Source of the DNA: Candidatus Sulfopaludibacter sp. SbA3
Lineage (GTDB): Bacteria; Acidobacteriota; Terriglobia; Bryobacterales; Bryobacteraceae
Assembly (NCBI GenBank): GCA_945890485.1
Contig: CAMDCN010000001.1
Coordinates: 248,001-312,000 of the forward strand
Length of the DNA stretch: 64,000 nt
Direction of reading: 5' to 3'
Made by a program: the position numbers and the translations under genes. Below, piece by piece: positions 36,432-52,812 of this stretch; the first letter of the stretch is position 1; each line of letters begins with the position of its first letter. Below the pieces are notes generated by a model. It was not told the origin of the DNA. It saw nothing but the letters and a program-made list of their open reading frames with translations, and ran no database searches.

Positions 36432-36878
36432 TCAGGAGCCGCGGAGCGCATCGCGAAGGCGTTTGATCTTGTCGTGCGCCTGACGGATGTGGGCGGCCTG
36501 TTCTTCGACGATGGGCCCGGCAATTTCGAGCAAACCGCCTTCCTGTGCCCGTCGATAAGCGGCAAGCGCAAGGTCTTCAGCGGCCTCGCACTCCTCTAGG
36601 ATCGCCAGATCGGCGCGTTTCGCCACCGCCGCTTTTAAGTTGATCCAGCCCCGATGAATCGCCCCCCCGAAGGTGCCGGTGTACTCCGCCTTTTCGCCGG
36701 ACTCCTCGACGATCAGTTGCAGCGCTTCGGCGAAGTCGGCCCGTTGCCTGGCGAATTCCATCAGCGTGTCTTTTAACAGCGGGTTGACGACAGCATCGGC
36801 GGCGGCGGCGAAGCCGGATTCGCCGTCCTTCAAGTGCTCGATCAGGTGGTTCAACTTCTCTCGTTCTTCGTAGTGCAT
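36432..36878 (-). CDS. DUF2383/PA2169-family four-helix-bundle protein
   Basis: A 148-residue protein predicted as a four-helix bundle related to ferritin-like proteins. It begins MHYEEREKLNHLIEHLKDGE, as in PA2169-type DUF2383 proteins, and has a GGAIHRGWINLKAAVA helix and a terminal EEQAAHIRQAHDKIKRLRD helix. The role is often linked to stress. It is divergent from the catalase gene with 63 bases between, so a shared stress promoter is plausible. A much longer minus frame (to 38144) is a shadow of the catalase. Confidence 0.8.
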   Translation of the reverse strand: MHYEEREKLNHLIEHLKDGESGFAAAADAVVNPLLKDTLMEFARQRADFAEALQLIVEESGEKAEYTGTFGGAIHRGWINLKAAVAKRADLAILEECEAAEDLALAAYRRAQEGGLLEIAGPIVEEQAAHIRQAHDKIKRLRDALRGS

Positions 36879-36941
36879 GGCGAAGTTGTGTGCATGCGGG
36901 GGACCATTCGGGAATGGGCATCCGGATGCAAGGGTGGTGGC

Positions 36942-38996
36942 ATGAAATCGAAACGATCCGCTCATCACCACGGCCCGTCTACTCAGGCCTCCACCGGACA
37001 AGGAGGCGAAACGCACCAGACCGGAGGTGAGGTTCCACTGACCAGCAATCACGGAACTCCGGTGTCGGACAATCAAAACTCGTTGCGGGCGGGAACGCGT
37101 GGCCCAACGCTGCTCGAAGACTTTCTGCTCATGGAGAAGATTACCCATTTTGACCATGAGCGGATTCCGGAACGGATCGTGCACGCGCGCGGGTCGGCGG
37201 CCCATGGTTACTTCCAGGCCTACGAATCGCTGACGGGCGTGACACGGGCGGCGTTTCTGGCGGATCCAAAGCTGAAGACCCCGGTATTCGCCCGATTCTC
37301 CACGGTGGCGGGGGGAAGCGGGTCTGTGGACCTGCCCAGAGATGTGCGCGGATTCGCGGTGAAGTTTTACACGACCGAAGGCAACTTTGACCTGGTAGGG
37401 AACAATATTCCGGTGTTCTTTATCCAGGACGCAATCAAGTTTCCAGATCTGATTCATGCGGTAAAAATGGAGCCGGACCGGGGATATCCGCAGGCGGCTT
37501 CGGCGCACGACACGTTCTGGGATTTCATCTCGCTGATGCCGGAGGCGCTGCATACAGTGATGTGGGCAATGTCGGACCGGGCCATTCCGCGGAGCTTGCG
37601 GATGATGGAAGGCTTTGGGGTCCACACGTTCCGGCTGGTGAACGCGGCGGGGGAGAGCACTTTCGTAAAGTTCCACTGGCGGCCGGTGATCGGCACGAGC
37701 GCCGTGCTGTGGGACGAGGCGGTGAAGATATGCGGAGCGGACCAGGACTATCACCGCCGGGATCTGTACGAGGCAATCGCGAAGGGGCACTTTCCCGAGT
37801 TTGAGTTGGGGCTCCAGATATTTGACCAAGCGACGGCCGACGGTTTGGAGTTCGATGCGTTGGACCCCACCAAGCTGGTGCCCGAAGAGGTGGTGCCTTT
37901 GCAGATGGTGGGCAAGATGACGCTCGATCGAAACCCGGATAACTTCTTTGCGGAGACCGAGCAGGTGGCATTCTGTCCGAGCCATGTGGTTCCGGGAATT
38001 GATTTTAGCGATGACCCGCTGCTGCAGGGGCGGCTGCATTCGTATCTCGACACACAGTTGAGCCGGCTGGGCGGGCCGAACTTTCATCAGATTCCGATCA
38101 ACCAACCGAAGTGTCCCTTCGCAAATAACCAGCGGGACGGGCACATGCAGATGGCCGTGCCCAAGGGACGGGTGAACTATGAGCCCAATTCATTGGACCC
38201 GGCGGCGCCGCGGGAGAGCCCGGAGCGGGGGTTCCAGACGTTTGCAGCGCCGGTGACCGGCGCGAAGGCGCGCGTGCGTTCGGAGAGTTTTGCGGACCAC
38301 TATTCGCAGCCGCGCATGTTCTACCGGAGTGTGACGCCGCAGGAGCGGAAGCACATGGCGCAGGCGTTGACGTTCGAATTGGGCAAGGTGGAGACGTTGG
38401 CCATACGGCAGCGGGTGCTGGGTCATCTGGACATGATCGCGCCGGAGCTAGGGGCGGCCGTGGCGAAAGCGCTAGGGATGCCGGGCGAGGCGCAAGTGAT
38501 TCACCCAGCGATGGCGCCGCGGGATGTCGCGTTGAGCCCAGCGGTGCGGCTCTATGGGAAATATGCGCCAACGCTGCAAGGACGGCGCGTCGGTCTGTTA
38601 CTTGGTCCCGGGTTCGATGGAACCAAAGCGAAGGAGTTGGAGGCGGAGCTAAAGGAGGCCGGGGCGATGGTTACCCGGATTGGACTGCAGGCTGGAGGCG
38701 CGGGGGATTCCGATGGGAAGCGGTGGCCGGTGGATGGGGCTTTGGCGGGGACGCCGTCGGTTCTGTTTGAAGCCGTGGCGATTCTGGCCGGCGCGACCGG
38801 GGATGCGATGTTGGCGGCGGATCCGGACGCGGTCGGATTCGCGATGGACGCCAAGCGGCACTTAAAGGTAATTGCGCTGGATGGCGTGGATAGCCTTGCG
38901 GATCGGGCCGACCTCGGCGGAGTGGTCGGCGTGGTAGAAGTGGGAGAGTTCGTGGCCTTGGCAAAGCACGGCAAGGTATGGAAGCGAGAGAAATGA
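36942..38996 (+). CDS. katE: large-subunit catalase (HPII/KatE type)
   Basis: A 684-residue haem catalase of the large (KatE) type. Active-site His and the surrounding motif are in RIVHARGSAAHGYFQ; the Asn is in GNFDLVGNNIPVFF; the proximal haem Tyr is in RMFYRSVTPQERKHM. A C-terminal flavodoxin/GATase-like domain begins near residue 550 (GRRVGLLLGPGFDGT). AAGGGTGGTGG leads the ATG at 36942. It is coupled (ATGA) to a catalase-fold partner at 38993. It removes hydrogen peroxide in the cytoplasm. Confidence 0.93.
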   Translation: MKSKRSAHHHGPSTQASTGQGGETHQTGGEVPLTSNHGTPVSDNQNSLRAGTRGPTLLEDFLLMEKITHFDHERIPERIVHARGSAAHGYFQAYESLTGVTRAAFLADPKLKTPVFARFSTVAGGSGSVDLPRDVRGFAVKFYTTEGNFDLVGNNIPVFFIQDAIKFPDLIHAVKMEPDRGYPQAASAHDTFWDFISLMPEALHTVMWAMSDRAIPRSLRMMEGFGVHTFRLVNAAGESTFVKFHWRPVIGTSAVLWDEAVKICGADQDYHRRDLYEAIAKGHFPEFELGLQIFDQATADGLEFDALDPTKLVPEEVVPLQMVGKMTLDRNPDNFFAETEQVAFCPSHVVPGIDFSDDPLLQGRLHSYLDTQLSRLGGPNFHQIPINQPKCPFANNQRDGHMQMAVPKGRVNYEPNSLDPAAPRESPERGFQTFAAPVTGAKARVRSESFADHYSQPRMFYRSVTPQERKHMAQALTFELGKVETLAIRQRVLGHLDMIAPELGAAVAKALGMPGEAQVIHPAMAPRDVALSPAVRLYGKYAPTLQGRRVGLLLGPGFDGTKAKELEAELKEAGAMVTRIGLQAGGAGDSDGKRWPVDGALAGTPSVLFEAVAILAGATGDAMLAADPDAVGFAMDAKRHLKVIALDGVDSLADRADLGGVVGVVEVGEFVALAKHGKVWKREK

Positions 38997-40060
38997 AACG
39001 GCCTTGGGTGATGTACGCGGATGGGGTGGAGCAGGAGCAACCCAACGAGAAGGCGCAGATTGCCGCGATCGTGGCCTCCATGGGGCGCGTGAACGAGGCG
39101 GTGTTTGACAAGCATCGCCATGCGTTGCGGGATGCGCATGCCAAGAGCCACGGCATTCTGAAGGGTGTCCTGACGGTACGTGCCGACCTGCCGGACGAGC
39201 TGGCGCAGGGGATCTTCGCCGCGGGCCGCGTCTACGAGGTGGTGGCGCGGCTTTCGAGCGCGCCGGGGGATATTCACCCGGATAGAGTGCGGAGTCTGAA
39301 AGGCATGGCGCTGAAGGTAATGGGCGTCGACGGGGCCGGGACGCAGGATTTTCTAATGGTGAATCTGCCGGTATTGCCGTTCGGGGATGTGGCGGCATAC
39401 CTGGCGTTCCAGGAAGGAGTGGAGGAGCGGGCGGTGCGGAAAGAGACGCCGGCAGTGCTGGTGCCGGAACTGGCGAGCGCCGCGTCGGTCGTGCTGGAGG
39501 CGGTGGGGCATCCCAATCGCCTGCTGGAGGCGCTGGGCGCAACGGCGCATCACATTCTGGGCGAGACCTTCCACACGATGGCCGCGCTGCGGTACGGGCG
39601 TTACGTGGCGAAGTTAAGCTTGGCGCCGGCGTCGGAGAACGTGAAGGAGTTGGTGGGGCAGCCGGTGGAGGACGGGGGGAACGATTCGGTGTACCGGGAT
39701 CTGGTGGTGGAGTTCTTTCGGCGGGAGGCGGCGGAATATGAGCTCCGGGTGCAGCTTTGCGTCGACCTGGAGACCATGCCGGTGGAGGATGCCTCAGTGG
39801 AGTGGTCCGTGGAGGCTTCACCGTTTGTGACCTTGGGAACGGTGCGATTTCCGGTGCAGGAGGCGTATAGTCCGGCGCGGCGAGTGTACGGCGATGAGGT
39901 GTTGTCGTTCAATCCGTGGCAGTGCGTCGAGGAGCACCGGCCGCTGGGTTCGATCATGCGATCGCGGCGCGCGGCGTACGAGGCGTCGTCGCGGTTCCGG
40001 CATGAGCGCAACGTCCGGCCCCGAGTGGAGCCGCGTGAGGCGGCGCAGATTCCGGACTAA
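38993..40060 (+). CDS. catalase-family protein (y4iL-like)
   Basis: A 355-residue protein of the catalase fold, smaller than true catalases. It shows AKSHGILKGVL with the candidate distal His and a C-terminal SFNPWQCVEEHRPLGS motif followed by RRAAYEASSRFRHER, typical of y4iL-like members. Haem binding is expected but catalase activity has not been established for this subgroup. The ATG at 38993 overlaps the catalase stop by four bases, so it is co-translated and may support or extend peroxide defence. Confidence 0.75.
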   Translation: MKRPWVMYADGVEQEQPNEKAQIAAIVASMGRVNEAVFDKHRHALRDAHAKSHGILKGVLTVRADLPDELAQGIFAAGRVYEVVARLSSAPGDIHPDRVRSLKGMALKVMGVDGAGTQDFLMVNLPVLPFGDVAAYLAFQEGVEERAVRKETPAVLVPELASAASVVLEAVGHPNRLLEALGATAHHILGETFHTMAALRYGRYVAKLSLAPASENVKELVGQPVEDGGNDSVYRDLVVEFFRREAAEYELRVQLCVDLETMPVEDASVEWSVEASPFVTLGTVRFPVQEAYSPARRVYGDEVLSFNPWQCVEEHRPLGSIMRSRRAAYEASSRFRHERNVRPRVEPREAAQIPD

Positions 40061-41159: not shown

Positions 41160-41300
41160 CCCACCGCTGCTACGGATGGTGACCCAGCGGTGGGGAAATT
41201 GGCGCAGCCGCGAGCACACGGGCGAAGGGGACTCGCCAAGTAACAGCAATCGTTGCGGGCCTGGCAATGGAATTGCAGCCTCCGGAAGCAAAGGAGGCCC
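41160..41300 (+). promoter_or_regulatory. structured hsp20 leader, candidate RNA thermometer
   Basis: The leader contains several small hairpins. A 10-bp stem pairs CCCACCGCTG (41160-41169) with CAGCGGTGGG (41185-41194). GGCGA/TCGCC pair at 41221-41237, GCAA/TTGC at 41246-41256 and GCAAT/ATTGC at 41264-41276. The last pairs GCCTCC (41278-41283) with GGAGGC (41293-41298), covering the Shine-Dalgarno AAGGAGG at 41291-41297. GGGCCT (41257-41262) can also pair AGGCCC (41295-41300), an alternative that hides the same site. Small-heat-shock genes often use such thermometers (ROSE, fourU); this one does not match the ROSE consensus and is an inference. Confidence 0.5.
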
Positions 41301-41306
41301 ATCCGA

Positions 41307-41840
41307 ATGGCCAAAGTAGAAGTGACAAAGACACCCGGGGCGAACGTCGACAATGCCCCAATCCCTTGGTTTCGCCCTTTCCCCGCACTGGGGAGCTTCA
41401 TGGGAGCGAACCCATTCGACATGATGCGCGAAATGACGAAGGCGTTTGATCGTCCTTTGTGGCCGGGAGAGGCGAAGGAGAGCATGTGGGCGCCGGCCAT
41501 TGAGTGCAAGCGCGTCAATGGCGAGTTACTCGTTACGGCAGAACTCCCCGGACTGAAGAAAGAAGACGTCACGGTGCGAATTACTGACGAAAGTCTGATC
41601 GTCGAGGGCGAGCGTAAGCTGGAGTCAAAAGAGGAAAAGGAAGGCTATTTCCGCTCCGAACGGAGCTATGGGAAGTTCTGGCGCCAGATTCCTCTGCCGG
41701 AAGGAGCTAATCCGGAGCTGATCAAAGCTTCGATGACCGACGGCTTGCTGGAGGTGAAAATTCCCGTTCAGGAAACGAAACCGATCGCCCGGCAAATCCC
41801 AATTGAGCAGCATGCCGCGCCACCGGCGGGGCCCAAGTAG
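41307..41840 (+). CDS. small heat-shock protein (Hsp20/alpha-crystallin)
   Basis: A 177-residue chaperone that holds unfolding proteins. The alpha-crystallin domain spans about 55-160: WAPAIECKRVNGELLVTAELPG, EDVTVRITDESLIVEGER, RSYGKFWRQIPLPEG and the final MTDGLLEVKIPV. An IPI-type C-terminal motif is seen (QIPIEQ). The ATG at 41307 has AAGGAGG nine bases upstream, embedded in a hairpin (see 41160). It lies 61 bases before the primase-like gene. Confidence 0.9.
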   Translation: MAKVEVTKTPGANVDNAPIPWFRPFPALGSFMGANPFDMMREMTKAFDRPLWPGEAKESMWAPAIECKRVNGELLVTAELPGLKKEDVTVRITDESLIVEGERKLESKEEKEGYFRSERSYGKFWRQIPLPEGANPELIKASMTDGLLEVKIPVQETKPIARQIPIEQHAAPPAGPK

Positions 41841-41901: not shown

Positions 41902-43332
41902 ATGGAGCGCACAACCGCTCGAATGATCCGCGAAGCCGGGGAACGAGGTATTTCGGGGGGGTACTACCAGCTGGAAACGGTGAGGGAGCGAATGTTGGAG
42001 TTCCTGGGCAAATCGCCTACCCGGCGAGCCACCGCTGTGTACCTGGTGGGCGCCGACGGGCGTAGCGGATTTACGGAGCCAACGCCAATCGACTCGCTGC
42101 CCCGCCTCCTGGACAGCGGGCTTGATGTCGAGAGGTCACTGTGGGACCGGGAGTTGTTGCTATTCGATATCGATATTGAGTATCAGAACTTTGACCGGCC
42201 GACGCTCGCCTGGAAAGACCCTGGCCGAGTGTTCCGCTTGCAGGAACCGATCCTGACGGCGGCGTTGGACTTCTTACGCGATCGCCTGATTGATCCGCTG
42301 GTCTTGGTCAGCGGCCGCGGATACCATCTGGTGTGGGCCATTTCCCGAGGTTCGCGGGCGTTTCGTCGTTTGGCGAAGCTCGGCTATGTACCGCCAACCT
42401 TGGCTACTCGTTATGCCGCGGTCCGCTCCCCGAGAGGAGAACGCGTGGACCTGGAATTGGGACGAGCCTTCGCCGGGCAAGGTCAGGTCGCCGAGTATCT
42501 CGGGCATCGGATCCGCGGCGCAGCGATGGAGCGTAGTGTGTTGCCAATCCAACTAACCGCCCTCGAGGTAGGGACGGGAGCGGCCGGCCGTGAAATTGTG
42601 TCGTTGGACCTGTCGGAATACGGCGACCCGATCCACACCCGGCACATCCGGCTTCCATTCAGCCTCTATCTGAAGCCCCGAGAGCCACGGTGGCAGCTCG
42701 AAGAATCGGAGCTACAACGTCTGCTGCCGATTGTGGAGATTCCGGTGGGAACGTTAACTGGTTCGGAGGCTAGCGCACTGGCGCGATGCCCGGCGCGGGT
42801 GGCCGCCCTGGCCGCGAGCGCCACCGTGAAAATCCCAGTTTTCTCCCGGCAGATGGACCGGGTGATCACCGAGTACGAGGATTCGCGTTTGGGACAGTGG
42901 CATCGCAACTCTTCTTGCCGGATTGCCGATGCGCCCGCGGGGACTTCCCGCGACGGTGGGACGCAGCGTGCTCCGCCGTGCCTGGATTGGCTCTTCGCAC
43001 GCGCCAACGACTGGCTCTTGAAGCCTGCCGCTCTGCAGCATGCCGTGCGGATTCTGACCTCCCTCAATTGGCCCCCGTCCGCCATTGCGCGGCGCATCTA
43101 CGAAAGCTACCGCAGCGATTGCAGTTGGGGCCGTACCTGGATCTCGATGGACCCAGCCTATCGGGCGGAGTTCTACACGCGGCTTTTCGCCGGAATGATC
43201 CATACAGGGGCGGACTCGTTGATTGACTTGAACTGCGTTTCGCATCAGGAGAAGGGCTACTGCCACGTTCCGGCCTGCCGGTCGAACCTGGTGGACTTCC
43301 GCGACCTCCTCCAACGAAGGAGAACAGCATGA
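41902..43332 (+). CDS. archaeo-eukaryotic-primase-like protein (PrimPol/PriS-like)
   Basis: A 476-residue protein that looks like the AEP primase superfamily. Motif I is LLLFDIDIE with D89 and D91; motif II is VLVSGRGYHLVW with H142; a motif III-like segment is near 234-258 (SLDLSEYGDPIHTRHIRLPF), whose tail resembles the PriS 'RLPGSLH.K' block. The C-terminal part holds C360, C445, C454 and C459 around KGYCHVPAC, recalling PriL Fe-S Cys, which is an inference. The start at 41902 has weak GGGG upstream; 41923 is an alternative. It overlaps the next gene by ATGA. It may prime or fill gaps in DNA repair. Confidence 0.65.
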   Translation: MERTTARMIREAGERGISGGYYQLETVRERMLEFLGKSPTRRATAVYLVGADGRSGFTEPTPIDSLPRLLDSGLDVERSLWDRELLLFDIDIEYQNFDRPTLAWKDPGRVFRLQEPILTAALDFLRDRLIDPLVLVSGRGYHLVWAISRGSRAFRRLAKLGYVPPTLATRYAAVRSPRGERVDLELGRAFAGQGQVAEYLGHRIRGAAMERSVLPIQLTALEVGTGAAGREIVSLDLSEYGDPIHTRHIRLPFSLYLKPREPRWQLEESELQRLLPIVEIPVGTLTGSEASALARCPARVAALAASATVKIPVFSRQMDRVITEYEDSRLGQWHRNSSCRIADAPAGTSRDGGTQRAPPCLDWLFARANDWLLKPAALQHAVRILTSLNWPPSAIARRIYESYRSDCSWGRTWISMDPAYRAEFYTRLFAGMIHTGADSLIDLNCVSHQEKGYCHVPACRSNLVDFRDLLQRRRTA

Positions 43333-44168
43333 GCGATTGGGCCATTGGACTATCCACCGGTTGTTTTTGGCAGACGAGCATCTTCGAGTGCCTCGAGCCG
43401 ATTCGCAATTCCGGATTCGATCGGCTGGAGATCTGCTCCTATCCGGCGCATCTGAACTATCACGACAAGCACTCCGTCGGTAGGGCCGCCGAAAAGATTC
43501 ACGCGCTCGGGCTGGAAGCCTATTCCTTCCATGCTCCATTCTCAGAGGGAATCGATATCACTTCGCCAGATCAATCGACCCGCGATTTCGCCATGGCGGA
43601 GTTGATCGGTGCGGCGGAGGCGGCGGCGTTACTGCAGGTGCGCTACTTCGTGCTGCACCCTGGGCCGGAGAAGGCCATTTTGCCGGAGAGTGAACGGTTC
43701 TTCCGCCTGCAGAACGCTGTGGATGTCCTGAACCGCTTCTATCATCACTGCCGGCGACTGGGCATCGGCTTGGTACTCGAAAACATGCTGCCGCACTTGT
43801 TTGCCGGCCGGACCCGGGACCTGATGTGGATACTGGGGGCGTTGGATGTTGACGATGTGGGGGTGTGCCTGGATACAGGGCACGCCTATCTGGCGGAGGA
43901 CCTGCTTCTGGTGGTCCACAAGCTGTCCGGGCATTTGTGGATGGTGCATGCAAGCGACAACCATCGGCAACGGGACGACCATTTGCCGCCGGGGACCGGC
44001 GCGATCGATTGGACCGCGCTCATGGCACATCTGACCAAGCTTCATTTCAATGGCACGATGATTCTGGAGATCGCGGGTGACGCGGACCAGACAATCACGT
44101 TGGAACGGGCCCGGGGCGGGCGCCAGCACCTCCGCGACCTGGCCCACCGTTTTCGCACAGATCGCTAA
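43329..44168 (+). CDS. TIM-barrel protein, endonuclease-IV/sugar-isomerase superfamily
   Basis: A 279-residue TIM barrel. The order of metal ligands follows endonuclease IV: H68 (FHAPF), H110 (VLHPG), E151 (VLENM), D182 and H185 (CLDTGHA), H207 (VHASD), D217 and H218 (DDHLPPGTG), E247 (LEIAG). The same pattern is partly kept in sugar-phosphate isomerase/epimerases (IolE-like), so the activity is unsettled. It overlaps the AEP-like gene by four bases, favouring a DNA-repair role. No export signal. It ends 61 bases before the lipoprotein gene. Confidence 0.75.
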   Translation: MSDWAIGLSTGCFWQTSIFECLEPIRNSGFDRLEICSYPAHLNYHDKHSVGRAAEKIHALGLEAYSFHAPFSEGIDITSPDQSTRDFAMAELIGAAEAAALLQVRYFVLHPGPEKAILPESERFFRLQNAVDVLNRFYHHCRRLGIGLVLENMLPHLFAGRTRDLMWILGALDVDDVGVCLDTGHAYLAEDLLLVVHKLSGHLWMVHASDNHRQRDDHLPPGTGAIDWTALMAHLTKLHFNGTMILEIAGDADQTITLERARGGRQHLRDLAHRFRTDR

Positions 44169-45042: not shown

Positions 45043-46962
45043 CTACTTCGCCGGGTACCAGGCGCGATCCCAGGGGAAGGCGAAGGTGGGTTTGTTGGTG
45101 TAGCGGGTCATCTGGAATTGCAGTTTCGTACCCGAACCCGGAGCGAGACGGACAGTAAGGATCGGTCCCTTGATGGGGGTCGTTTGACCGTTGATGGTGA
45201 CCGACTCGAAGTTATGTTCCCCGTAGCCGCCGGCTTGGACGACGACCTCGCGGGCTTCGAGTTGATTGGTGTTGACGAGGGTCATGGTGGCGCTGTTGGC
45301 TTCCAGCTTTTCCACGAGCGAGGCCACGCCTTCCGGTAGTCCGGCCCGGCGCTTGACGGGGTCAAAGTGGCGGAAGCGGCTGTGGAGTACCCAGACGCGG
45401 CCGTTGGCGAAGTAGCCCCCGACGGTGAGGTTGAGCAGCGCGGCGGTGGCGGCGGGGTTGTAGTCGAGCAGATAGTCGGCGAGCCGGGAGTCGGCCGTGG
45501 TCTGGTCTTCGGTGAAGTCGGCGACCTTTTGGCGAACATGGTTCAGATCCTGCCGGAGGGCCTTCTCCGGGTAGTCCGGCAGCTTGCCTTCGAGGAAGCC
45601 GAGCCAGTACGTGGTGCGGTCGGGGTCGCCATAGCCGCGGCTGCGGCGGGATTCGGGCATTGCGGTAGCGACCGGAATCCGTTCCAGATCTTTGCGGTCC
45701 ATGGAGCGGAGGTAGATCTCCATCAGGCGGTCGTGGTGCAGATTGGGCCCGAACTGGTACCAGCTCGGGGGCCCGTCGTGCTTGTAGCCGCGAGGATCGC
45801 CGTACATTTGGGGCAGTAGCGTGCGGCCGTTCTCGACTTTCTTCTGGGCGTACAGGTTGTCGAGTTGCTTGCGGAGGACCTGGGTATAGGACTGGTCGCC
45901 GCTGAGGAGCAGGGCGTTGCCGAAGCCGGGCCAAGTGCCGGCGGTGAAGTAGTTGCGATGGGCGATCTGGCCGAGTTCGCCATCGAAGATGGTGAAGTTC
46001 CAACCGTAGGTACCTTTCCACCACTGGCCCTTGTATTCGCCGCCGAGCTTTCCATCGAGGCCGATGTTGCTGGGGATATTGCCACCGGCTTCGATGGAGC
46101 GCTGCTTCCAGGCGTCGGCGTAGCCGAGGGCCCATTGGCGGTGCTTTTCTTCTCCGGTGAGCATGTACGCGTTCAGTCCGAGAATGGTAGCGGCCAGGTT
46201 GAGCGAGTTGTCGCCCACGCTGTCGAGATACTCGTCACAGTGGGCCAGCATTTTCTTGTAATTGGCTTGGAGATCGAGCATCTTGCCGCGAGAGGCGGGG
46301 TTGTGCAGGAGATGGAAGGTGCCGGGGACGGGGTCGCCGACCCAATCGTAGGTCGTCGCCTTGCGAAGCATGGGGCCGAGGCTGCCGGTCCAGATGCTTT
46401 TGATGATCTTCTTGGCGGGATCGTAGTTGGGGGTGTCGGGATCTTCGCCGTTGTACATGTTGGCGAAGCGGACCATGCGCTGCCGGTAGGTGGCATCGTT
46501 GGGGTTCGAGAGCCCTTCGAGAAGGAAAGCGCGGAGACCTTCGGCTGTATGAAACCAGTCGGATTGGGTGATGAACTCCTGCTTGTACGCGCCATTGGCC
46601 GCCAGGGAGGTGAGCTTGGTGCGGATTTCGCCGTACTGCTTCCAGTGGCCTTCCTGAGCCAGCTTATAGTGTTGCAGGACGGAGTCGGAGCCGCCGAGGG
46701 CGTGGAGGAGAGTCCAGTTCCAAGTGGTCTCGACAGCGTCATCGGGACCATCGAGTGTGCCCCAGCGCGGGGTGTGGGCGAGGTAGCCGCGATTGTCGTA
46801 GTATTTGGCGGCGAAGCGGTCGACGGCCTCGGAGTTGTACTTCAGCAGTTCGCGCTCGAGCAGGGCCCAAGCGGGGGGCGGCATAGGCGTCTTGACGTGC
46901 AAGGCGGGCGATTGCGCGAAGAGGCCGGGCGCGAGGAGGAGGAGGGGAAGGAGGCGATGCAT
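45043..46962 (-). CDS. large exported protein of unknown function
   Basis: A 639-residue exported protein (signal MHRLLPLLLLAPGLFAQ). The middle has helix-rich Trp/Tyr repeats (ETTWNWTLLHALGG; KGTYGWNFTIFDGELGQIAHRN; TTYWLGFLEGKLPDYP) as in alpha/alpha-toroid polysaccharide lyases and glycosidases. A beta-rich end (TMTLVNTNQLEAREVVVQAGG) follows. No catalytic residues identified. It is divergent from the caspase-like gene with 43 bases between. Family not recognised with confidence. Confidence 0.55.
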   Translation of the reverse strand: MHRLLPLLLLAPGLFAQSPALHVKTPMPPPAWALLERELLKYNSEAVDRFAAKYYDNRGYLAHTPRWGTLDGPDDAVETTWNWTLLHALGGSDSVLQHYKLAQEGHWKQYGEIRTKLTSLAANGAYKQEFITQSDWFHTAEGLRAFLLEGLSNPNDATYRQRMVRFANMYNGEDPDTPNYDPAKKIIKSIWTGSLGPMLRKATTYDWVGDPVPGTFHLLHNPASRGKMLDLQANYKKMLAHCDEYLDSVGDNSLNLAATILGLNAYMLTGEEKHRQWALGYADAWKQRSIEAGGNIPSNIGLDGKLGGEYKGQWWKGTYGWNFTIFDGELGQIAHRNYFTAGTWPGFGNALLLSGDQSYTQVLRKQLDNLYAQKKVENGRTLLPQMYGDPRGYKHDGPPSWYQFGPNLHHDRLMEIYLRSMDRKDLERIPVATAMPESRRSRGYGDPDRTTYWLGFLEGKLPDYPEKALRQDLNHVRQKVADFTEDQTTADSRLADYLLDYNPAATAALLNLTVGGYFANGRVWVLHSRFRHFDPVKRRAGLPEGVASLVEKLEANSATMTLVNTNQLEAREVVVQAGGYGEHNFESVTINGQTTPIKGPILTVRLAPGSGTKLQFQMTRYTNKPTFAFPWDRAWYPAK

Positions 46963-47005
46963 CGGCGTGATTCTATCTGATTTCGAGGGTTGCTATGATG
47001 CCGGG

Positions 47006-48826
47006 ATGCGTTGGATTTGGTTAGTGGCCGGGATACTTTGCGCGCAGCAGGCGAGGGACCTGGCTTGGGAGGCCGGTCCGCCAGCCAACGTTTTGCGCGA
47101 TGCGGGAACGCGTTGGGCGTTGGTGGTGGGGGTATCGCAGCATGAGAACCTACCGGCGGCGGCGCAACTTCGGTATGCGCATCGGGACGCGGAGGAGTTC
47201 GCAGGCTTCTTACTAACGGCGGGGGGAGGCGCGCTGCCGCCAGACCATGTGAAGGTGCTTACAGATGAGCGGGCGACGCTCGGGGAGATTCGCGCGGCGT
47301 TGCATAGTTGGCTGCCGGGGGTGGCGAAGCCGGAGGACGTTGTCTATGTGTTCTTCGCCGGGCATGGGGTGGTGGCCGAACGGGAAGAGGGCTACTTTGT
47401 CGCCCATGACTCGGACCCGCAGAATCTGCATTCGACGGGCTTGTCGTTCGCGGAAGTGGAGGAGACCTTGACGAGGCGGATGCGGGCGAAGTTAGTCGTG
47501 ATGATGGCGGATGCGTGCCATGCGGGGCAGTTAGGTTGGAGCAGTTACTCGGGGGCCGGGGCAGGAAAGGCGATGGGACAGTTGGAGAAGCTAGGCGACC
47601 GGAACTTTCTAAAGATACTTTCGGCACGGCCGAGCGAGCAATCGTTTGAGGATGCGCGTTGGAATGGAGGGGTGTTTACCTATGCGCTGCTAGCGGGCTT
47701 GCGCGGTGGCGCGGACCGGGACGGCGACAAGGTTGTCCGAGCGTCGGAGGTGATCGATTTTCTGTCGGAACGGGTGCCGGCGGAGACGGGAGCGCGGCAG
47801 AATCCACGGGTGGCGGGTACGTTTGATGCGCGGCTCGCCTTGGCAACGGTGCCGGGGGCGCCCGTTGCCGGCGCGCTGGCGTTGGAGGTCGACGGGCCGG
47901 ACGGGGTGGGAGTGTATGTAGACCATGTGTTTCGTGGGAGCCTGCGAACGGGCCGGCGTTTGCGCGTGGACGGGTTGGCGGAAGGGGTGCATCGCGTGGG
48001 GGCGGACACGGGGTTTGAGGGGCTTGTGAAATTGAATGCTCCGGTCTCCTTGATGCGCTTGCCGCTGGCCAAAGCGGAGCGGCGGGTGGCGGAGTTGGAG
48101 ACGGCAGGGCAAGCGTGCGTATCGGACTATGTGGCTTCGACGACCGCGGGCCCGAAGCGGATTCTGTTGGAGAAGGCGGTGGCGAGTTTGGAGGAGTTGG
48201 GGCGGTTGCGGCCGCAGGATGGATCGATCGAGACCCGGCGGCTGTTTTGCCTAGGGCGGCTGCAGATTGCGACGAACCGATTTAACGAGGCGGAAGGAAG
48301 CTTGCGGGCGGCATTGCAGCGCGATCCGCAGTTTGCGTGCGCGCGGAATGCGTTGGGGGTGGCGTTGGGACGGTTGGGGAGGGGAACGGAGGCGCGGGCG
48401 GAGTTCGACAAGGCGGCGGAATTGACGCCGGAGTGGGCGCTGCCGCTGGTGCAGGTGGGGAATCAGTTATTGGCGGGGGGGAAGGTGAAGGACGCGTTGG
48501 GGTATTTCGAGAAGGCGGTGAAGATGCAGCCGGCTTCGCGGGCGAACCGGGCAGCGCTGGTACGGGGGTACCGGGCGGCAGGGAAGACGGGGGAGGCGCG
48601 GCGGGGGGCGGAGGAGTTGATTCAGATGGATCCGGGGTATGCGCCGGGGCACTTGGAGTTGGCCAGGACGCTGGAGGCGCAGGGGGATGCGTTGGGGGCA
48701 GCGGGGGCTTATGAGGCGTACTTATTGCTGGCGCCAAACTATGGGGATAGCGAGGAGATTCGGGCGCGGACCGGGCGGCTCAAGACGACAGGGAGCGGGG
48801 CGGCGCCGACGTTGAAGCGGAAGTAG
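47006..48826 (+). CDS. exported caspase-like (metacaspase/C14) protein with TPR repeats
   Basis: A 606-residue protein. The caspase-like domain is about 35-270, with the catalytic dyad His120 in VYVFFAGHGVV and Cys171 in MMADACHAGQLG, the classic C14 pair. A short export signal (RWIWLVAGILCAQQ) precedes it. A PEGA-like strand region lies at about 290-360 and five or six TPR units are in the last 220 residues (ALGVALGRLGRGTEARAEFD). The ATG at 47006 was chosen for the signal; longer frames overlap the divergent gene. The target is unknown; roles in cell death or signalling are speculative. Confidence 0.83.
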   Translation: MRWIWLVAGILCAQQARDLAWEAGPPANVLRDAGTRWALVVGVSQHENLPAAAQLRYAHRDAEEFAGFLLTAGGGALPPDHVKVLTDERATLGEIRAALHSWLPGVAKPEDVVYVFFAGHGVVAEREEGYFVAHDSDPQNLHSTGLSFAEVEETLTRRMRAKLVVMMADACHAGQLGWSSYSGAGAGKAMGQLEKLGDRNFLKILSARPSEQSFEDARWNGGVFTYALLAGLRGGADRDGDKVVRASEVIDFLSERVPAETGARQNPRVAGTFDARLALATVPGAPVAGALALEVDGPDGVGVYVDHVFRGSLRTGRRLRVDGLAEGVHRVGADTGFEGLVKLNAPVSLMRLPLAKAERRVAELETAGQACVSDYVASTTAGPKRILLEKAVASLEELGRLRPQDGSIETRRLFCLGRLQIATNRFNEAEGSLRAALQRDPQFACARNALGVALGRLGRGTEARAEFDKAAELTPEWALPLVQVGNQLLAGGKVKDALGYFEKAVKMQPASRANRAALVRGYRAAGKTGEARRGAEELIQMDPGYAPGHLELARTLEAQGDALGAAGAYEAYLLLAPNYGDSEEIRARTGRLKTTGSGAAPTLKRK

Positions 48827-48838
48827 CGCCGTGAAGCG

Positions 48839-51388
48839 CTACAAACGTGGGTCGATGGGTTCGCTTTCGAGGGCCAGAACGCCGAAGACGCACTCGTGTA
48901 CTCGGCGCAGGGGCGCCCGGGAAACGAATCGTTCGAGGGCCTCGACGCCAAGGGCGAACTCGCGGGCTGCCAAGGATCGCTTTCCGGCCACGGAGCGCTG
49001 ACGCAGGCGCGGCAGTTGGTCATCGGCGGTATATTCGGGACCGTAGATGATCCGCAGGTATTCGCGGCCGCGACATTTCAGCGCAGGTTGGACGAGCCCT
49101 TTGGGACCCTTCTCAATGAAGGCCAAGGGCTTCACCACCATTCCTTCTCCGCCTTGCCCGGTGAGGGTTTCCCACCACTCCGTGGCGGCCTGGACCTGTT
49201 CCATATCTTGCACGGCAACCTCACGATAGGGGGTGGCCACGAAGAGTCCCGGGTCGGCAGCGGCGAGGCGTTGCAGGGTGTCCATGTGCCAGCGGTGGGA
49301 CCGGTCCGTGTGGACCGCACCCTCTGAAGCGAGCAGGTGGAAAGGCGCCAACTTGTAGTCGGAAAGCGAGGTGACGGGCCAGCAGTAGCGGCGATAGGCT
49401 TCGCGGTAGGCGCGCACACGCGACAGTCGCCGTTCGAAGGCTGGGACCAAGTGAGCGGCCACCGGGCTGAGTTGGAGAGTGTGAACCGCGGCCTCCAGCG
49501 AAGCGATACCTGACGCGCCCACCGGGGCATACTGCCGCTGCAGCAGTTCGCGGGCCTTCGCCGACCAGGGCATCAGCTCGCAATCGAGACAGAGCCAAGT
49601 GGTTTCGAGTTCATCCCAAAAGCCGGCGAGCGTTACGGCTTCCGATACCCGGGCAATGAAGGCAGACTCCTCGGCCGGATTCGGAAAGAACGGCCGTCCG
49701 GATCGGGTGTAGCAAATTCCCGAGCGACCGTCCTTGACCCCGAATCGTTCCTGCGCGGCATCCGCGTCACGGCACACGATGACCACTGCCCGGGAGCCCA
49801 TGTGCTTCTCCTGGCAGACCACGCGTTCCACTCCGTTCTTCCGAAAGTAGTTGAAGGTCTCGGTGGGATATTCGAGGTAAGTCTCCCGGGCCGACGTTTC
49901 ACTGGGAGACATGGTGGGCGGCAGATAGATGAGCCAGTGGGGATCGACCGCGTAGCGGCTCATGACTTCGAGGGCGGCGATCGAGTTTTCGGCTTGAATG
50001 GTGACGGTGCGGTGAAGACGGGTTTCGATGATCCGCTCGCCGGTGACGTCCTCAAGATCGAGCACGTCATCATTCACCTGTTGCGAAGTGCGCGCGTCGG
50101 CAACCGGGGCGATCGGCCGGATGGGTTCGGCGTATTGCCTTGCTGCCGGGATGGCGAGGAACTCTCGCTCGGGGTAGCGGAGCGCCGTGAGGCTGCCGCC
50201 GAAGACGGCGCCCGTGTCGATATTGACGGTGCTGTTCAGCCACTCCGGCGCAGGGACGGGCGTGTGGCCGTAGACTACTGTGGCGCGGCCACGATACTCC
50301 GCAGCCCAATTGTGGCGGATGGGTAAGCCGAACTCATCGGTTTCGCCGGTGGTTTCGCCATAGAGGCAGAACTCGCGGACGGCGCCCGAACTGCGGCCGT
50401 GCATCGCTTCTTTCAGACCCGCATGGGCGACGACCAACCGGCCGTCGTCGAAGACGTAGTGGCTGATCAGGCTGTCCAGGAACGAGGCGAGGTGGTTACG
50501 TTCGGCGGGTGGCAGGGGCTCGATTTCGGCGATGGACTGCTCCAGGCCGTGTTTGATTTGCACCTTCTTGCCGCGCAGCCAACGCATCAACTTCACGTCG
50601 TGGTTACCGGCGACACAGAAGGCATAGCCCGCCGTGATCATGTTGCGAACGATACGCAGGCAGTCCAGGACATGAGGTCCGCGATCGACGAGGTCACCAA
50701 CGAAGATCGCTCGGCGGCCTTCGGGATGCCGCCAGCATTCCGCGCCCCAGGGTTGCTCGGGCTCCGCGAGATCGTATCGCTGCCATCCGAGTTGTTCCAG
50801 CAGCAGACGAAGCTCCGCAGCACACCCGTGCAGGTCGCCGATGATGTCGAAGGGTCCTGTTTGGTCTTTCTTGTTGGTCCAAAGGGGGATCCGCTCAACC
50901 TGCAGATCGCTCGTATCGCTGAGAACGTGCACATAGCGGAAGCCTTCGCGTTCCAATCCGCGAAGGCCTTTCTTGAGATCGGCGGATTGACGCCGGACAA
51001 CGTGCGCACCAAAGTTCCGGTCACTCCGCTGTTGGTTCCTTTCCTGACAGAGGCGTTCCGGCGTGTTGATCACAATCGCCACGGCAAGGCAATGGTGTTT
51101 GCGGGCGACCTCCACAATCCGCTTGCGATCTTCGGGACGGACGTTGGTTGCGTCAACGACGGTGAGCCTGCCGCGGGTAAGACGCTTCTCGAGTAAGTAG
51201 TACAGGGCGTCGAAGGCATCCGGCGTGGCGGATTGATCATTCTCGTCATCGCTGACCAAGCCGCGAAAGAAATCCGAAGAGAGGATCTCCGAAGGAAGGA
51301 AGTGTTGCCGGGCGAAGGTCGACTTGCCGGAACCGGACACGCCAATCAGGGCGACCACGGCGAGTTCAGGGACTTCGAGGCGCTTCAT
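48839..51388 (-). CDS. pnkp: polynucleotide kinase-phosphatase-ligase (bacterial Pnkp)
   Basis: An 849-residue three-domain RNA-repair enzyme. The kinase has the P-loop GVSGSGKST at 16-24 and heals 5'-OH ends. The metallophosphoesterase has GDLHG (184-188), GDLVDRGP (231-238), GNHD (261-264) and AHAG near 321, and removes 2',3'-cyclic phosphate. The ligase/adenylyltransferase has the nucleotidyl Lys at 528 in CQEKHMGSRAV, LDCELMPW, EGMVVKPL and YLRIIYG. Length and order match Clostridium thermocellum Pnkp. The start at 51388 overlaps the hen1 stop by ATGA. Pnkp alone does not seal; Hen1 is its partner. Confidence 0.95.
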   Translation of the reverse strand: MKRLEVPELAVVALIGVSGSGKSTFARQHFLPSEILSSDFFRGLVSDDENDQSATPDAFDALYYLLEKRLTRGRLTVVDATNVRPEDRKRIVEVARKHHCLAVAIVINTPERLCQERNQQRSDRNFGAHVVRRQSADLKKGLRGLEREGFRYVHVLSDTSDLQVERIPLWTNKKDQTGPFDIIGDLHGCAAELRLLLEQLGWQRYDLAEPEQPWGAECWRHPEGRRAIFVGDLVDRGPHVLDCLRIVRNMITAGYAFCVAGNHDVKLMRWLRGKKVQIKHGLEQSIAEIEPLPPAERNHLASFLDSLISHYVFDDGRLVVAHAGLKEAMHGRSSGAVREFCLYGETTGETDEFGLPIRHNWAAEYRGRATVVYGHTPVPAPEWLNSTVNIDTGAVFGGSLTALRYPEREFLAIPAARQYAEPIRPIAPVADARTSQQVNDDVLDLEDVTGERIIETRLHRTVTIQAENSIAALEVMSRYAVDPHWLIYLPPTMSPSETSARETYLEYPTETFNYFRKNGVERVVCQEKHMGSRAVVIVCRDADAAQERFGVKDGRSGICYTRSGRPFFPNPAEESAFIARVSEAVTLAGFWDELETTWLCLDCELMPWSAKARELLQRQYAPVGASGIASLEAAVHTLQLSPVAAHLVPAFERRLSRVRAYREAYRRYCWPVTSLSDYKLAPFHLLASEGAVHTDRSHRWHMDTLQRLAAADPGLFVATPYREVAVQDMEQVQAATEWWETLTGQGGEGMVVKPLAFIEKGPKGLVQPALKCRGREYLRIIYGPEYTADDQLPRLRQRSVAGKRSLAAREFALGVEALERFVSRAPLRRVHECVFGVLALESEPIDPRL

Positions 51389-52812
51389 TTTGCAACTCCC
51401 TGGGTGAAGACGGCCAACTGGGACGGCGCCCCGTGCTGGGGATCCTCTGGGCCAACAGGCTCGAAACGAACGGAGTAGCCAAAGCGATTGGCCATCCGGG
51501 TGGCCCAGTCTTGGAACTCGGCGCGTGTCCACTCAAACCGATGGTCGGTGTGGCGAAACTTGCCTTCGGGTAGGGTGGGGAACAGGACGTTGTACTCCCG
51601 ATTTGGGGTGGTGATGAGGATGTAGCGGGGACGGGCGAATTCAAAGAGCACCCGCTCCAGTGCGATCAGACGGGCAGGATCGAGATGCTCAATCACTTCG
51701 ACCAACGCAGCGGCGTCGAAGCCTTCGAGGCGCTTGTCCCGATAGAGCAGCGAGCCTTGGATGAGTTCGATCCGTTCGCGTTGGCGCGGCGCAAGCGTTT
51801 CCAGATGGAGGCGCTGGGCGGCAATTTCCAGCGACCGGTGGCTGACGTCCATTCCCTGTACTTTTTCGAAACGCCGATCGGCGAGAAGGCGGCGGATTAG
51901 TTTGCCTTCGCCACAGCCGAGATCGAGCACACTTTTGGCTTGCAGGGTGGTGAGGAGCGCGGCGACTTGATTCAGGCGGTGGGTGTGCAACGTCATCGGC
52001 CGTTCCAGATCCTGTTCGGCCAAAGCGGCCACTTCCGGGGCGGTGGCGTCGCCGCCTGGCTCGGCGGACTCGTCGAGCAAACGAGCCTCTTCAACGAGGC
52101 GGGCGACGGCCTGATCCATCAGCGAGTGGCGTCGCTTCAGGTAGCGGCTGATGATTAACTGCTGTTCGGGATGCCGGCCGAGCCAGCCCTCGCCATGACG
52201 CAACAGCTTATCCACTTCGGCTTCGCCAACGAAGTAGTGCTTGGATTCGTCGAGAACCGGCAACAGGACATACAGGTGGGTGAGCAGGTCATGCACCGTG
52301 CCGGTACACGAGAGGCAGAGGCGGAAGTACGGGCTTTCGCCCCATTCGGGGAACCGGTCATCAAGAGCAAGTCGCGTCGCTTCCACCTGATAACCGAGGG
52401 GTTCGAAGAGTTTCGTCAGCACTTCGGCTCCGCCGCGTGCCCGGACGACTTCGACAATCGCGGTGAGATTCAACTTCGCATGGACCAACTCCGGCCGCTT
52501 CTTGCATTTGCCGGCTAAGGCCGTCCCGAAGATGCGTCCCAGTGCGACGGTGAGATAGGAGGAGGCTACATAGGGCCGATCGTTGACGTACTGTTCCAAT
52601 TGCTGCGCGCCACGAACCAGTTCAACCGGGTTGATCTCCAGTAACAGGTGCGCCGAGCAACGCTCCTCGGACGCCTCCGAATAGAACACGTTCGCTACCC
52701 CGAATGGTAAGTCTACCGTGTTCAGGTTTGCCGGGTTCTTATGTAGCAGATATCCGAGATCGAGTGCGTTCTCGCTGTCGTTTGTTTGAGTTTGCGAAAT
52801 GGTAAGCAGCAT
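51385..52812 (-). CDS. hen1: Hen1 3'-terminal RNA ribose 2'-O-methyltransferase
   Basis: A 475-residue protein that methylates the 3'-terminal ribose during RNA repair. The N-terminal ~240 residues form the Hen1 N-domain that activates Pnkp ligation (LDLGYLLHKNPANLN; SYLTVALGRIFGTAL). The methyltransferase half has VLDLGCGEGKL near 295-305, the metal-binding E372-x-x-E375-H376 (EVIEH) and H421/H424 in FRHTDHRFEW. It is the upstream partner of pnkp, overlapping by four bases. By family, it marks repaired ends against repeat cutting. Confidence 0.94.
   Translation of the reverse strand: MLLTISQTQTNDSENALDLGYLLHKNPANLNTVDLPFGVANVFYSEASEERCSAHLLLEINPVELVRGAQQLEQYVNDRPYVASSYLTVALGRIFGTALAGKCKKRPELVHAKLNLTAIVEVVRARGGAEVLTKLFEPLGYQVEATRLALDDRFPEWGESPYFRLCLSCTGTVHDLLTHLYVLLPVLDESKHYFVGEAEVDKLLRHGEGWLGRHPEQQLIISRYLKRRHSLMDQAVARLVEEARLLDESAEPGGDATAPEVAALAEQDLERPMTLHTHRLNQVAALLTTLQAKSVLDLGCGEGKLIRRLLADRRFEKVQGMDVSHRSLEIAAQRLHLETLAPRQRERIELIQGSLLYRDKRLEGFDAAALVEVIEHLDPARLIALERVLFEFARPRYILITTPNREYNVLFPTLPEGKFRHTDHRFEWTRAEFQDWATRMANRFGYSVRFEPVGPEDPQHGAPSQLAVFTQGVAK

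What the first reader, a model, noticed from the sequence alone, without database searches (positions are those of the whole stretch)
41902..44168. AEP primase-like gene coupled to an endonuclease-IV-like gene
The 476-residue protein has AEP motif I (DID at 89-91), a GRGYH motif II and a PriS-like motif III segment (LDLSEYGDPIHTRHIRLP), plus four C-terminal Cys (360, 445, 454, 459) that recall the PriL Fe-S domain. The next gene overlaps by ATGA and carries the full endonuclease-IV ligand set (H68, H110, E151, D182, H185, H207, D217, H218, E247). A coupled AEP and AP-endonuclease-like pair would make a plausible base-excision or gap-filling module. I know of no described system with this pair, though I cannot search.
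Basis: partly seen in the sequence, partly recalled or inferred. Interest (0 to 1): 0.85.

Follow-up and report, generated by a model that had tools for sequence, protein, structure and literature searches.

The report
New primase-polymerase paired with endonuclease-IV-like enzyme
Scattered members of the Acidobacteria carry an unannotated gene pair, a DNA-repair-type primase-polymerase followed directly by an endonuclease-IV-like enzyme and often found beside stress genes, which looks like a small repair kit for damaged DNA but has not been tested in the laboratory.

Summary
The pair is real: 24 of 25 testable AEP copies, in 10 families and 4 classes of the phylum, have this barrel directly downstream, mostly overlapping by four bases. 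In a 396-genome phylum sample the six full partner genes lie in the six AEP genomes. The one unpaired AEP copy has lost the acid at 93. Many loci, not all, carry oxidative-stress or dormancy genes (OsmC, USP, Hsp20, CBS).
Best reading: a stress-linked gap-repair module of the Prim-PolC kind. No activity is shown.

The parts
41902..43332 (+). AEP-fold protein, 476 aa (Prim-PolC/LigD-Pol-like fold; no sequence family)
42172..42180 (+). AEP motif I, D91-I-E93 (hDhE)
   Evidence: position 91 acidic in 21 of 21 rows, position 93 acidic in 20 of 21; D89 in 10 of 21
42310..42327 (+). AEP motif II, SGRGYH (residues 137-142)
   Evidence: H142 in 21 of 22 rows (Q in L039)
42604..42609 (+). AEP motif III, L235-D236, followed by GDPxxxRxxRxPFSxYxK
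   Evidence: D236 in 22 of 22 rows that truly cover it; row L070, which begins downstream in non-homologous frame, was set aside
42979..43278 (+). C-terminal four-Cys region (C360, C445, C454, C459)
   Evidence: C360 22/22, C445 21/22, C454 22/22, C459 21/22 rows; no convincing sequence match to a PDB chain
43317..43332 (+). AAGGAG plus ATGA stop/start overlap (likely translational coupling)
   Evidence: Sequence; 4-base overlap in 12 of 17 measured pairs
43329..44168 (+). AP_endonuc_2 TIM-barrel protein, 279 aa, with the nine endonuclease-IV-type ligands H68 H110 E151 D182 H185 H207 D216 H218 E247
   Evidence: PF01261 E 5e-33; eight ligands invariant in 14 of 14 members of A4, H68 in 13 of 14 (Q in L038)
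41253..41840 (+). Hsp20 gene immediately upstream, same strand (context)
   Evidence: PF00011 E 4.4e-24
36834..40060 (+). Catalase and catalase-like genes upstream (oxidative-stress context)
   Evidence: PF00199 E 8.1e-177 and 5.8e-08

Best explanation
The pair is a stress-linked DNA gap-repair module. The TIM-barrel partner is a metal-dependent phosphodiesterase of the endonuclease-IV type that incises or cleans a damaged strand (an abasic site or a blocked 3' end). The AEP then fills the resulting short gap, probably preferring ribonucleotides as Prim-PolC does, and a ligase encoded elsewhere seals it. The genes overlap, are co-inherited, and in many loci follow oxidative-stress or dormancy genes, so the module would act in oxidatively damaged or non-growing cells. 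Shown here: the ORFs, the predicted fold of the AEP, conservation of its three motifs and of the partner's nine ligands, gene overlap, co-occurrence, context. Inferred: both catalytic activities, the substrate (DNA rather than RNA or a small molecule), rNTP preference, cooperation of the two proteins, the ligase, timing of expression.
Against: Partner is far below the Nfo cut-off (30.5 vs 129.65 bits) and aligns without the loop insertions of the genome's canonical Nfo (that one of them is DNA-binding loop 1 is recalled). Six TIM barrels in genomes without the AEP (L089, L091-L095, 29-31% identical) keep the same nine ligands, so the ligand set alone does not prove DNA cleavage. The host already has a canonical Nfo. 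hhalign finds no similarity between the AEP family and three LigD polymerase domains (probability 0.1), and Foldseek TM-scores to LigD/Prim-PolC are low (0.29-0.36 by query, 0.41-0.50 by target). Some paired members depart from the motifs (E for D91 in L040, Q for H142 in L039; L037 lacks two Cys). Eight of 29 AEP stretches showed none of the stress genes probed. Ligases were not searched for near the pair.
Confidence: 0.5

Rival explanations
1. The AEP repairs nucleic acid, but the TIM barrel is not a DNA endonuclease: it is a different three-metal phosphodiesterase or a sugar-phosphate enzyme (MJ1311-like, CbiR-like) that makes, removes or recycles a nucleotide used by or produced with the AEP.
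For: Best solved-structure sequence match is the uncharacterised MJ1311 (3wqo, 125.1 bits, E 3.1e-35), well above the best Nfo (5zhz, 51.5 bits). Best NCBIfam match is CbiR (48.9 bits, cut-off 105), a cobamide-cleaving enzyme of the same superfamily (passages of PMC7733943). Nfo loop insertions absent.
Against: Nine Nfo-type ligands conserved; in the two tagatose 3-epimerase alignments printed, the equivalents of H68, H110 and D216/H218 are missing. A non-nucleic-acid role would leave the tight pairing with an AEP unexplained.
Confidence: 0.27
2. The pair handles RNA rather than DNA: the AEP makes short RNA and the partner trims or repairs RNA in resting cells.
For: The nearest AEP, Prim-PolC, prefers rNTPs. 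RtcB and archease lie next to the pair in L014, a Pnkp/Hen1 RNA-repair pair lies 4.7 kb downstream in the window, and a hibernation-factor gene is in L014 and L042.
Against: In the neighbour clustering RtcB appears only in L014 and L041, two genomes of one genus, while OsmC, USP and Hsp20 recur in several families; RNA-repair genes were not searched for separately. Nearest solved folds are DNA-repair polymerases.
Confidence: 0.1
3. An anti-phage or other conflict system, since the pair is patchy and the AEP evolves faster than its partner.
For: AEP found in 13 of 237 genomes of the family, 6 of 396 of the phylum sample, 9 of 193, 1 of 38 and 5 of 148 in three other class searches; decayed or fragmentary copies in G198, G199, G214; within the genus the AEP is 65-69% but the partner 85-90% identical to the window's.
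Against: No PADLOC match of the AEP, only a 15-bit hit of the partner; no phage or plasmid match at E up to 1; the neighbours identified are mostly stress genes, though defence genes were not searched for in the flanks.
Confidence: 0.06
4. A replication primase left by a mobile element, or a chance neighbourhood.
For: Many bacterial AEPs belong to mobile elements (PMC5862659, passages seen). The genome has 42 PF01261-type matches.
Against: No phage or plasmid relative; pairing kept in 10 families in different neighbourhoods. Integrases and helicases in the flanks were not searched for.
Confidence: 0.04

Closest known systems
Mycobacterial Prim-PolC with LigC (base excision repair)
   Different: No sequence match to any PDB chain or to LigD domains; a C-terminal four-Cys region of unknown fold; the gene partner is an endonuclease-IV-like TIM barrel; a ligase neighbour was not searched for
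LigD polymerase domain (PF21686)
   Different: PF21686 does not match this genome nor any of 24 AEP rows at E up to 1; hhalign probability 0.1
Endonuclease IV / Nfo (TIGR00587)
   Same: AP_endonuc_2 barrel, nine metal ligands at equivalent positions
   Different: 30.5 against a cut-off of 129.65 bits; lacks loop insertions; genome has a separate Nfo at 234.6 bits
MJ1311 (3wqo) and CbiR
   Same: Best solved-structure sequence match and best NCBIfam match of the partner
   Different: MJ1311 is listed as uncharacterised; CbiR acts on cobamides and its cut-off is not met (48.9 vs 105)
Archaeal PriS (PF01896) and CRISPR-associated Prim-Pol (CAPP)
   Different: PF01896 does not match this genome; CRISPR genes near the pair were not searched for

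Membership tests
Archaeo-eukaryotic primase superfamily | AEP catalytic fold | tested here: met
Archaeo-eukaryotic primase superfamily | Motifs hhhDhD/E, sxH, hD/E | tested here: met
   D91/E93, H142, D236 conserved as counted; motif definition from PMC4538821. Superposition of these side chains on Prim-PolC was not examined
Archaeo-eukaryotic primase superfamily | Primase or polymerase activity | not testable with these tools
   Needs purified protein
LigD / Prim-PolC polymerase group | Sequence match to the LigD_Prim-Pol model or to LigD domains | tested here: not met
   PF21686 gives no match in this genome and none among 24 AEP rows; hhalign of A5 with three LigD domains probability 0.1
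LigD / Prim-PolC polymerase group | Operon link with Ku or an ATP-dependent DNA ligase | not tested
   Neighbours were sampled by Pfam, not searched for Ku or LigC
Endonuclease IV (Nfo) | Nine ligands of the three-metal site | tested here: met
   Eight invariant in 14 of 14 members, H68 in 13 of 14; same columns as canonical Nfo
Endonuclease IV (Nfo) | Score above the curated family cut-off | tested here: not met
   30.5 vs 129.65 bits; 29.5
Endonuclease IV (Nfo) | Loop insertions that bind DNA | tested here: not met
   Gaps opposite these segments of the genome's own Nfo in A7; their DNA-binding role is recalled and no model of the partner was made
Endonuclease IV (Nfo) | AP endonuclease activity | not testable with these tools
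   Needs assay
Sugar isomerases/epimerases of AP_endonuc_2 | Score above curated cut-offs (IolE, IolO, psicose epimerase, hydroxypyruvate isomerase) | tested here: not met
   37.1/290, 35.8/300, 30.5/300, 24.7/353.45 bits
CbiR | Score above the curated cut-off | tested here: not met
   48.9 vs 105 bits
PriL-type Fe-S domain | Four-Cys cluster domain related to PriL C-terminus | tested here: inconclusive
   Cys conserved, but no sequence match, and this region was barely covered in the fold comparison

The most novel reading that the evidence does not exclude
A previously undescribed excision-repair pathway of resting bacteria. A new AEP family and a new class of three-metal phosphodiesterase form a dedicated two-enzyme unit that cuts oxidised DNA ends and patches the gap with ribonucleotides, under control of dormancy signals. 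In one genome the AEP is in one frame behind CBS-pair (possibly nucleotide-sensing) domains, and in one class the unit is encoded directly after an osmC-like peroxide-defence gene in seven genomes.
Probability: 0.3. Interest if true: 0.88.

Novelty: new variant of a known kind. Interest (0 to 1): 0.74.

Why it matters
It adds an AEP family invisible to the sequence libraries searched here and ties it genetically to an endonuclease-IV-like enzyme and, in many loci, to oxidative-stress genes. That is an independent, operon-level case for AEPs as excision-repair polymerases outside mycobacteria, in a phylum often described as slow-growing (recalled). Two small proteins make the hypothesis directly testable in vitro.

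Tried and rejected
A first AlphaFold2 run with six close relatives gave a poor model (pLDDT 48.1) and was not used; the second, with 24 rows, was good. Sequence routes to a family for the AEP failed: Pfam, NCBIfam, PHROGs, PADLOC, PDB by phmmer and by profile, hhalign to three LigD domains, PF01896 and PF21686 in the own genome. The viral structure library gave no hit under 1e-3 (best 1.3e-3). Phage and plasmid tblastn at E up to 1: none. The four-Cys region alone gave no convincing PDB sequence match (best E 0.56), and VIA-align rows barely covered it, so its fold is untested. G394 holds a partner fragment (193 bits, one TGA) with no AEP signal within 1.5 kb; it is in the same genus as paired G411, so I read it as decay, but it could be an unpaired member. 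Rows set aside: L070 was dropped from the D236 count because its contig starts inside the gene. In one search five relatives (L088, L090, L092, L093, L095) were read on the wrong strand; L092, L093 and L095 were read correctly, L088 and L090 were not used. The 29 AEP stretches are not independent (the window plus four genomes of one genus; three genomes split over two contigs), differ in length, and the probes came from AEP loci, which favours them. The control was 20 windows of 14 kb at round positions chosen by me in ten of the same genomes. Outside the phylum I searched only genome contigs with one close-relative query (three loci, all titled Acidobacteria or a family of it), phages and plasmids, so presence in other phyla is open. 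Literature: the listings (2 papers; 1; 20 of 9,937; 15 of 44; none; 10) showed no title or abstract start describing this pair; only passages of five papers were seen. The 2005 AEP survey (10.1093/nar/gki702) is not held and was not read.

Full report
What is there. The window lies in a genome of 7.13 Mb in 35 contigs; the three named relatives found are titled Acidobacteria, Acidobacteriaceae and Bryobacteraceae bacteria. ORF 41902-43332 encodes 476 aa and ORF 43329-44168 encodes 279 aa; they share ATGA, and an AAGGAG stands just before the second start. An Hsp20 gene ends 61 bases upstream of the first start, and catalase and catalase-like genes lie further upstream.

C-terminal region. Four Cys are nearly invariant (22, 21, 22 and 21 of 22 rows; L037 lacks two). 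A profile of this region alone finds no convincing PDB chain. A PriL-type Fe-S domain is possible but untested.

Second protein. It is an AP_endonuc_2 barrel (E 5e-33). All nine ligands that hold the three metals in endonuclease IV (roles recalled) are at the same columns as in the genome's own Nfo on contig C8, which scores 234.6 bits against a cut-off of 129.65. The partner scores about 30. Among 14 members eight ligands are invariant and H68 is kept in 13. In the five alignments printed, two tagatose epimerases lack several of these ligands, while MJ1311 and a probable endonuclease IV (5zhz) keep them by my reading. Against an Nfo identity: loop insertions of Nfo are missing, MJ1311 is the best solved-structure sequence match, CbiR is the best NCBIfam match, and six related barrels in genomes without the AEP also carry the nine ligands. 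So a three-metal hydrolase is likely, an AP endonuclease is plausible, and the substrate is open.

The pair is a unit. AEP relatives were found in 13 of 237 genomes of the family, 6 of 396 of a phylum sample including this genome, and in 9 of 193, 1 of 38 and 5 of 148 genomes of three other classes; these samples overlap. Together this is 28 genomes with 29 copies, three of them decayed or fragmentary (G198, G199, G214). Of the 26 remaining copies one (G897) ends at its contig edge. Of the 25 testable copies, 24 have the TIM barrel directly downstream on the same strand (6, 9, 6, 3), in 10 families as numbered by the tool; in G164 the partner runs off the contig, and in G162, G625 and G729 the AEP is split over two contigs. 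The exception is the second copy in G658 (L069), whose downstream neighbour is a multihaem-cytochrome-like ORF and which alone has lost the acidic residue at 93. A partner profile over the 396-genome sample finds six full members (372-493 bits) in the six AEP genomes; they are rows of the profile, so their scores are high by construction, but the next are a 193-bit fragment and other barrels at 168 bits or less. In 17 measured pairs 12 overlap by four bases, one by one and one by 59 (G501), and three are separated by 1-12 bases; pairwise distances of the two proteins correlate (Pearson 0.92, Spearman 0.70). That correlation partly reflects shared ancestry and is not independent proof.

Context. 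Directly upstream, on the same strand, the neighbour changes with the clade: OsmC in seven loci of one class (L039, L040, L049, L064-L067; Pfam over cut-off in five of the six tested, L064 below at 23.9 vs 27.5; L066 by phmmer only), a phosphoribosyltransferase in four of the five AEP-bearing genomes of the window's genus but not in the window, a CBS gene in L078 and L079, and in L080 a CBS pair in frame with the AEP. Among 29 AEP-bearing stretches (367 kb) and 20 control windows (280 kb) of the same genomes: USP 12 vs 3, Hsp20 8 vs 1, phosphoribosyltransferase 6 vs 0, OsmC 7 vs 0, CBS 4 vs 1, hibernation factor 2 vs 0, catalase 2 vs 0, NtrC-type regulator 4 vs 3. The stretches are partly redundant and the probes came from AEP loci, so the contrast is indicative. 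Eight stretches (L037, L038, L041, L043, L044, L050, L068, L077) show none of these genes in the flank held.

How it most likely works. Oxidative or dormancy stress leaves abasic sites and blocked 3' ends. The partner would incise or clean, the AEP would fill the short gap, and a ligase would seal. Mycobacteria provide the precedent: Prim-PolC fills 1-3 nt gaps with rNTPs, and endonuclease IV as bait co-purified LigC (passages of PMC5663958 and PMC7442782). The present system differs in sequence family, in its four-Cys region and in carrying its own endonuclease-IV-like gene. All catalytic steps are inferred.

Verdict. The finding is confirmed and strengthened. An unannotated AEP family is stably coupled to a specific endonuclease-IV-like subfamily in Acidobacteriota. 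I file the first protein as an AEP by fold and motifs, and I do not file the second as Nfo. The paper listings that I saw (only 20 of 9,937) did not show a description of the pair.

Noticed in passing
window 48842-52812 (-): Bacterial Pnkp/Hen1 RNA-repair pair: kinase-phosphatase-ligase Pnkp (897-aa ORF) and Hen1 (475-aa ORF), 4.7 kb downstream of the AEP pair.
   Followed up: partly
window 46805-48823 (+): Caspase-like/CHAT peptidase domain with TPR repeats, with relatives in L010, L011 and L013.
   Followed up: no
L080:5579-7444 (+): AEP in one continuous frame behind two CBS domains, suggesting a nucleotide-sensing fusion; the contig ends just after it, so the partner cannot be checked.
   Followed up: partly
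L069:6452-7822 (-): Second AEP copy in genome G658: no TIM-barrel partner and acidic position 93 lost, next to a universal stress protein gene.
   Followed up: yes
L014:11729-13593 (-): RtcB RNA ligase and archease divergent from the AEP pair in another genus, with a USP and a hibernation factor (S30AE plus cold-shock domain) on the other side.
   Followed up: partly
L089, L091-L095 (relatives of window 43329-44168): A wider set of AP_endonuc_2 barrels in genomes without the AEP also keeps all nine endonuclease-IV-type ligands; function not known to me.
   Followed up: partly
L046, L047, L048: Decayed or fragmentary AEP copies in three other genomes of the family, with no partner found in the stretch held.
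   Followed up: partly
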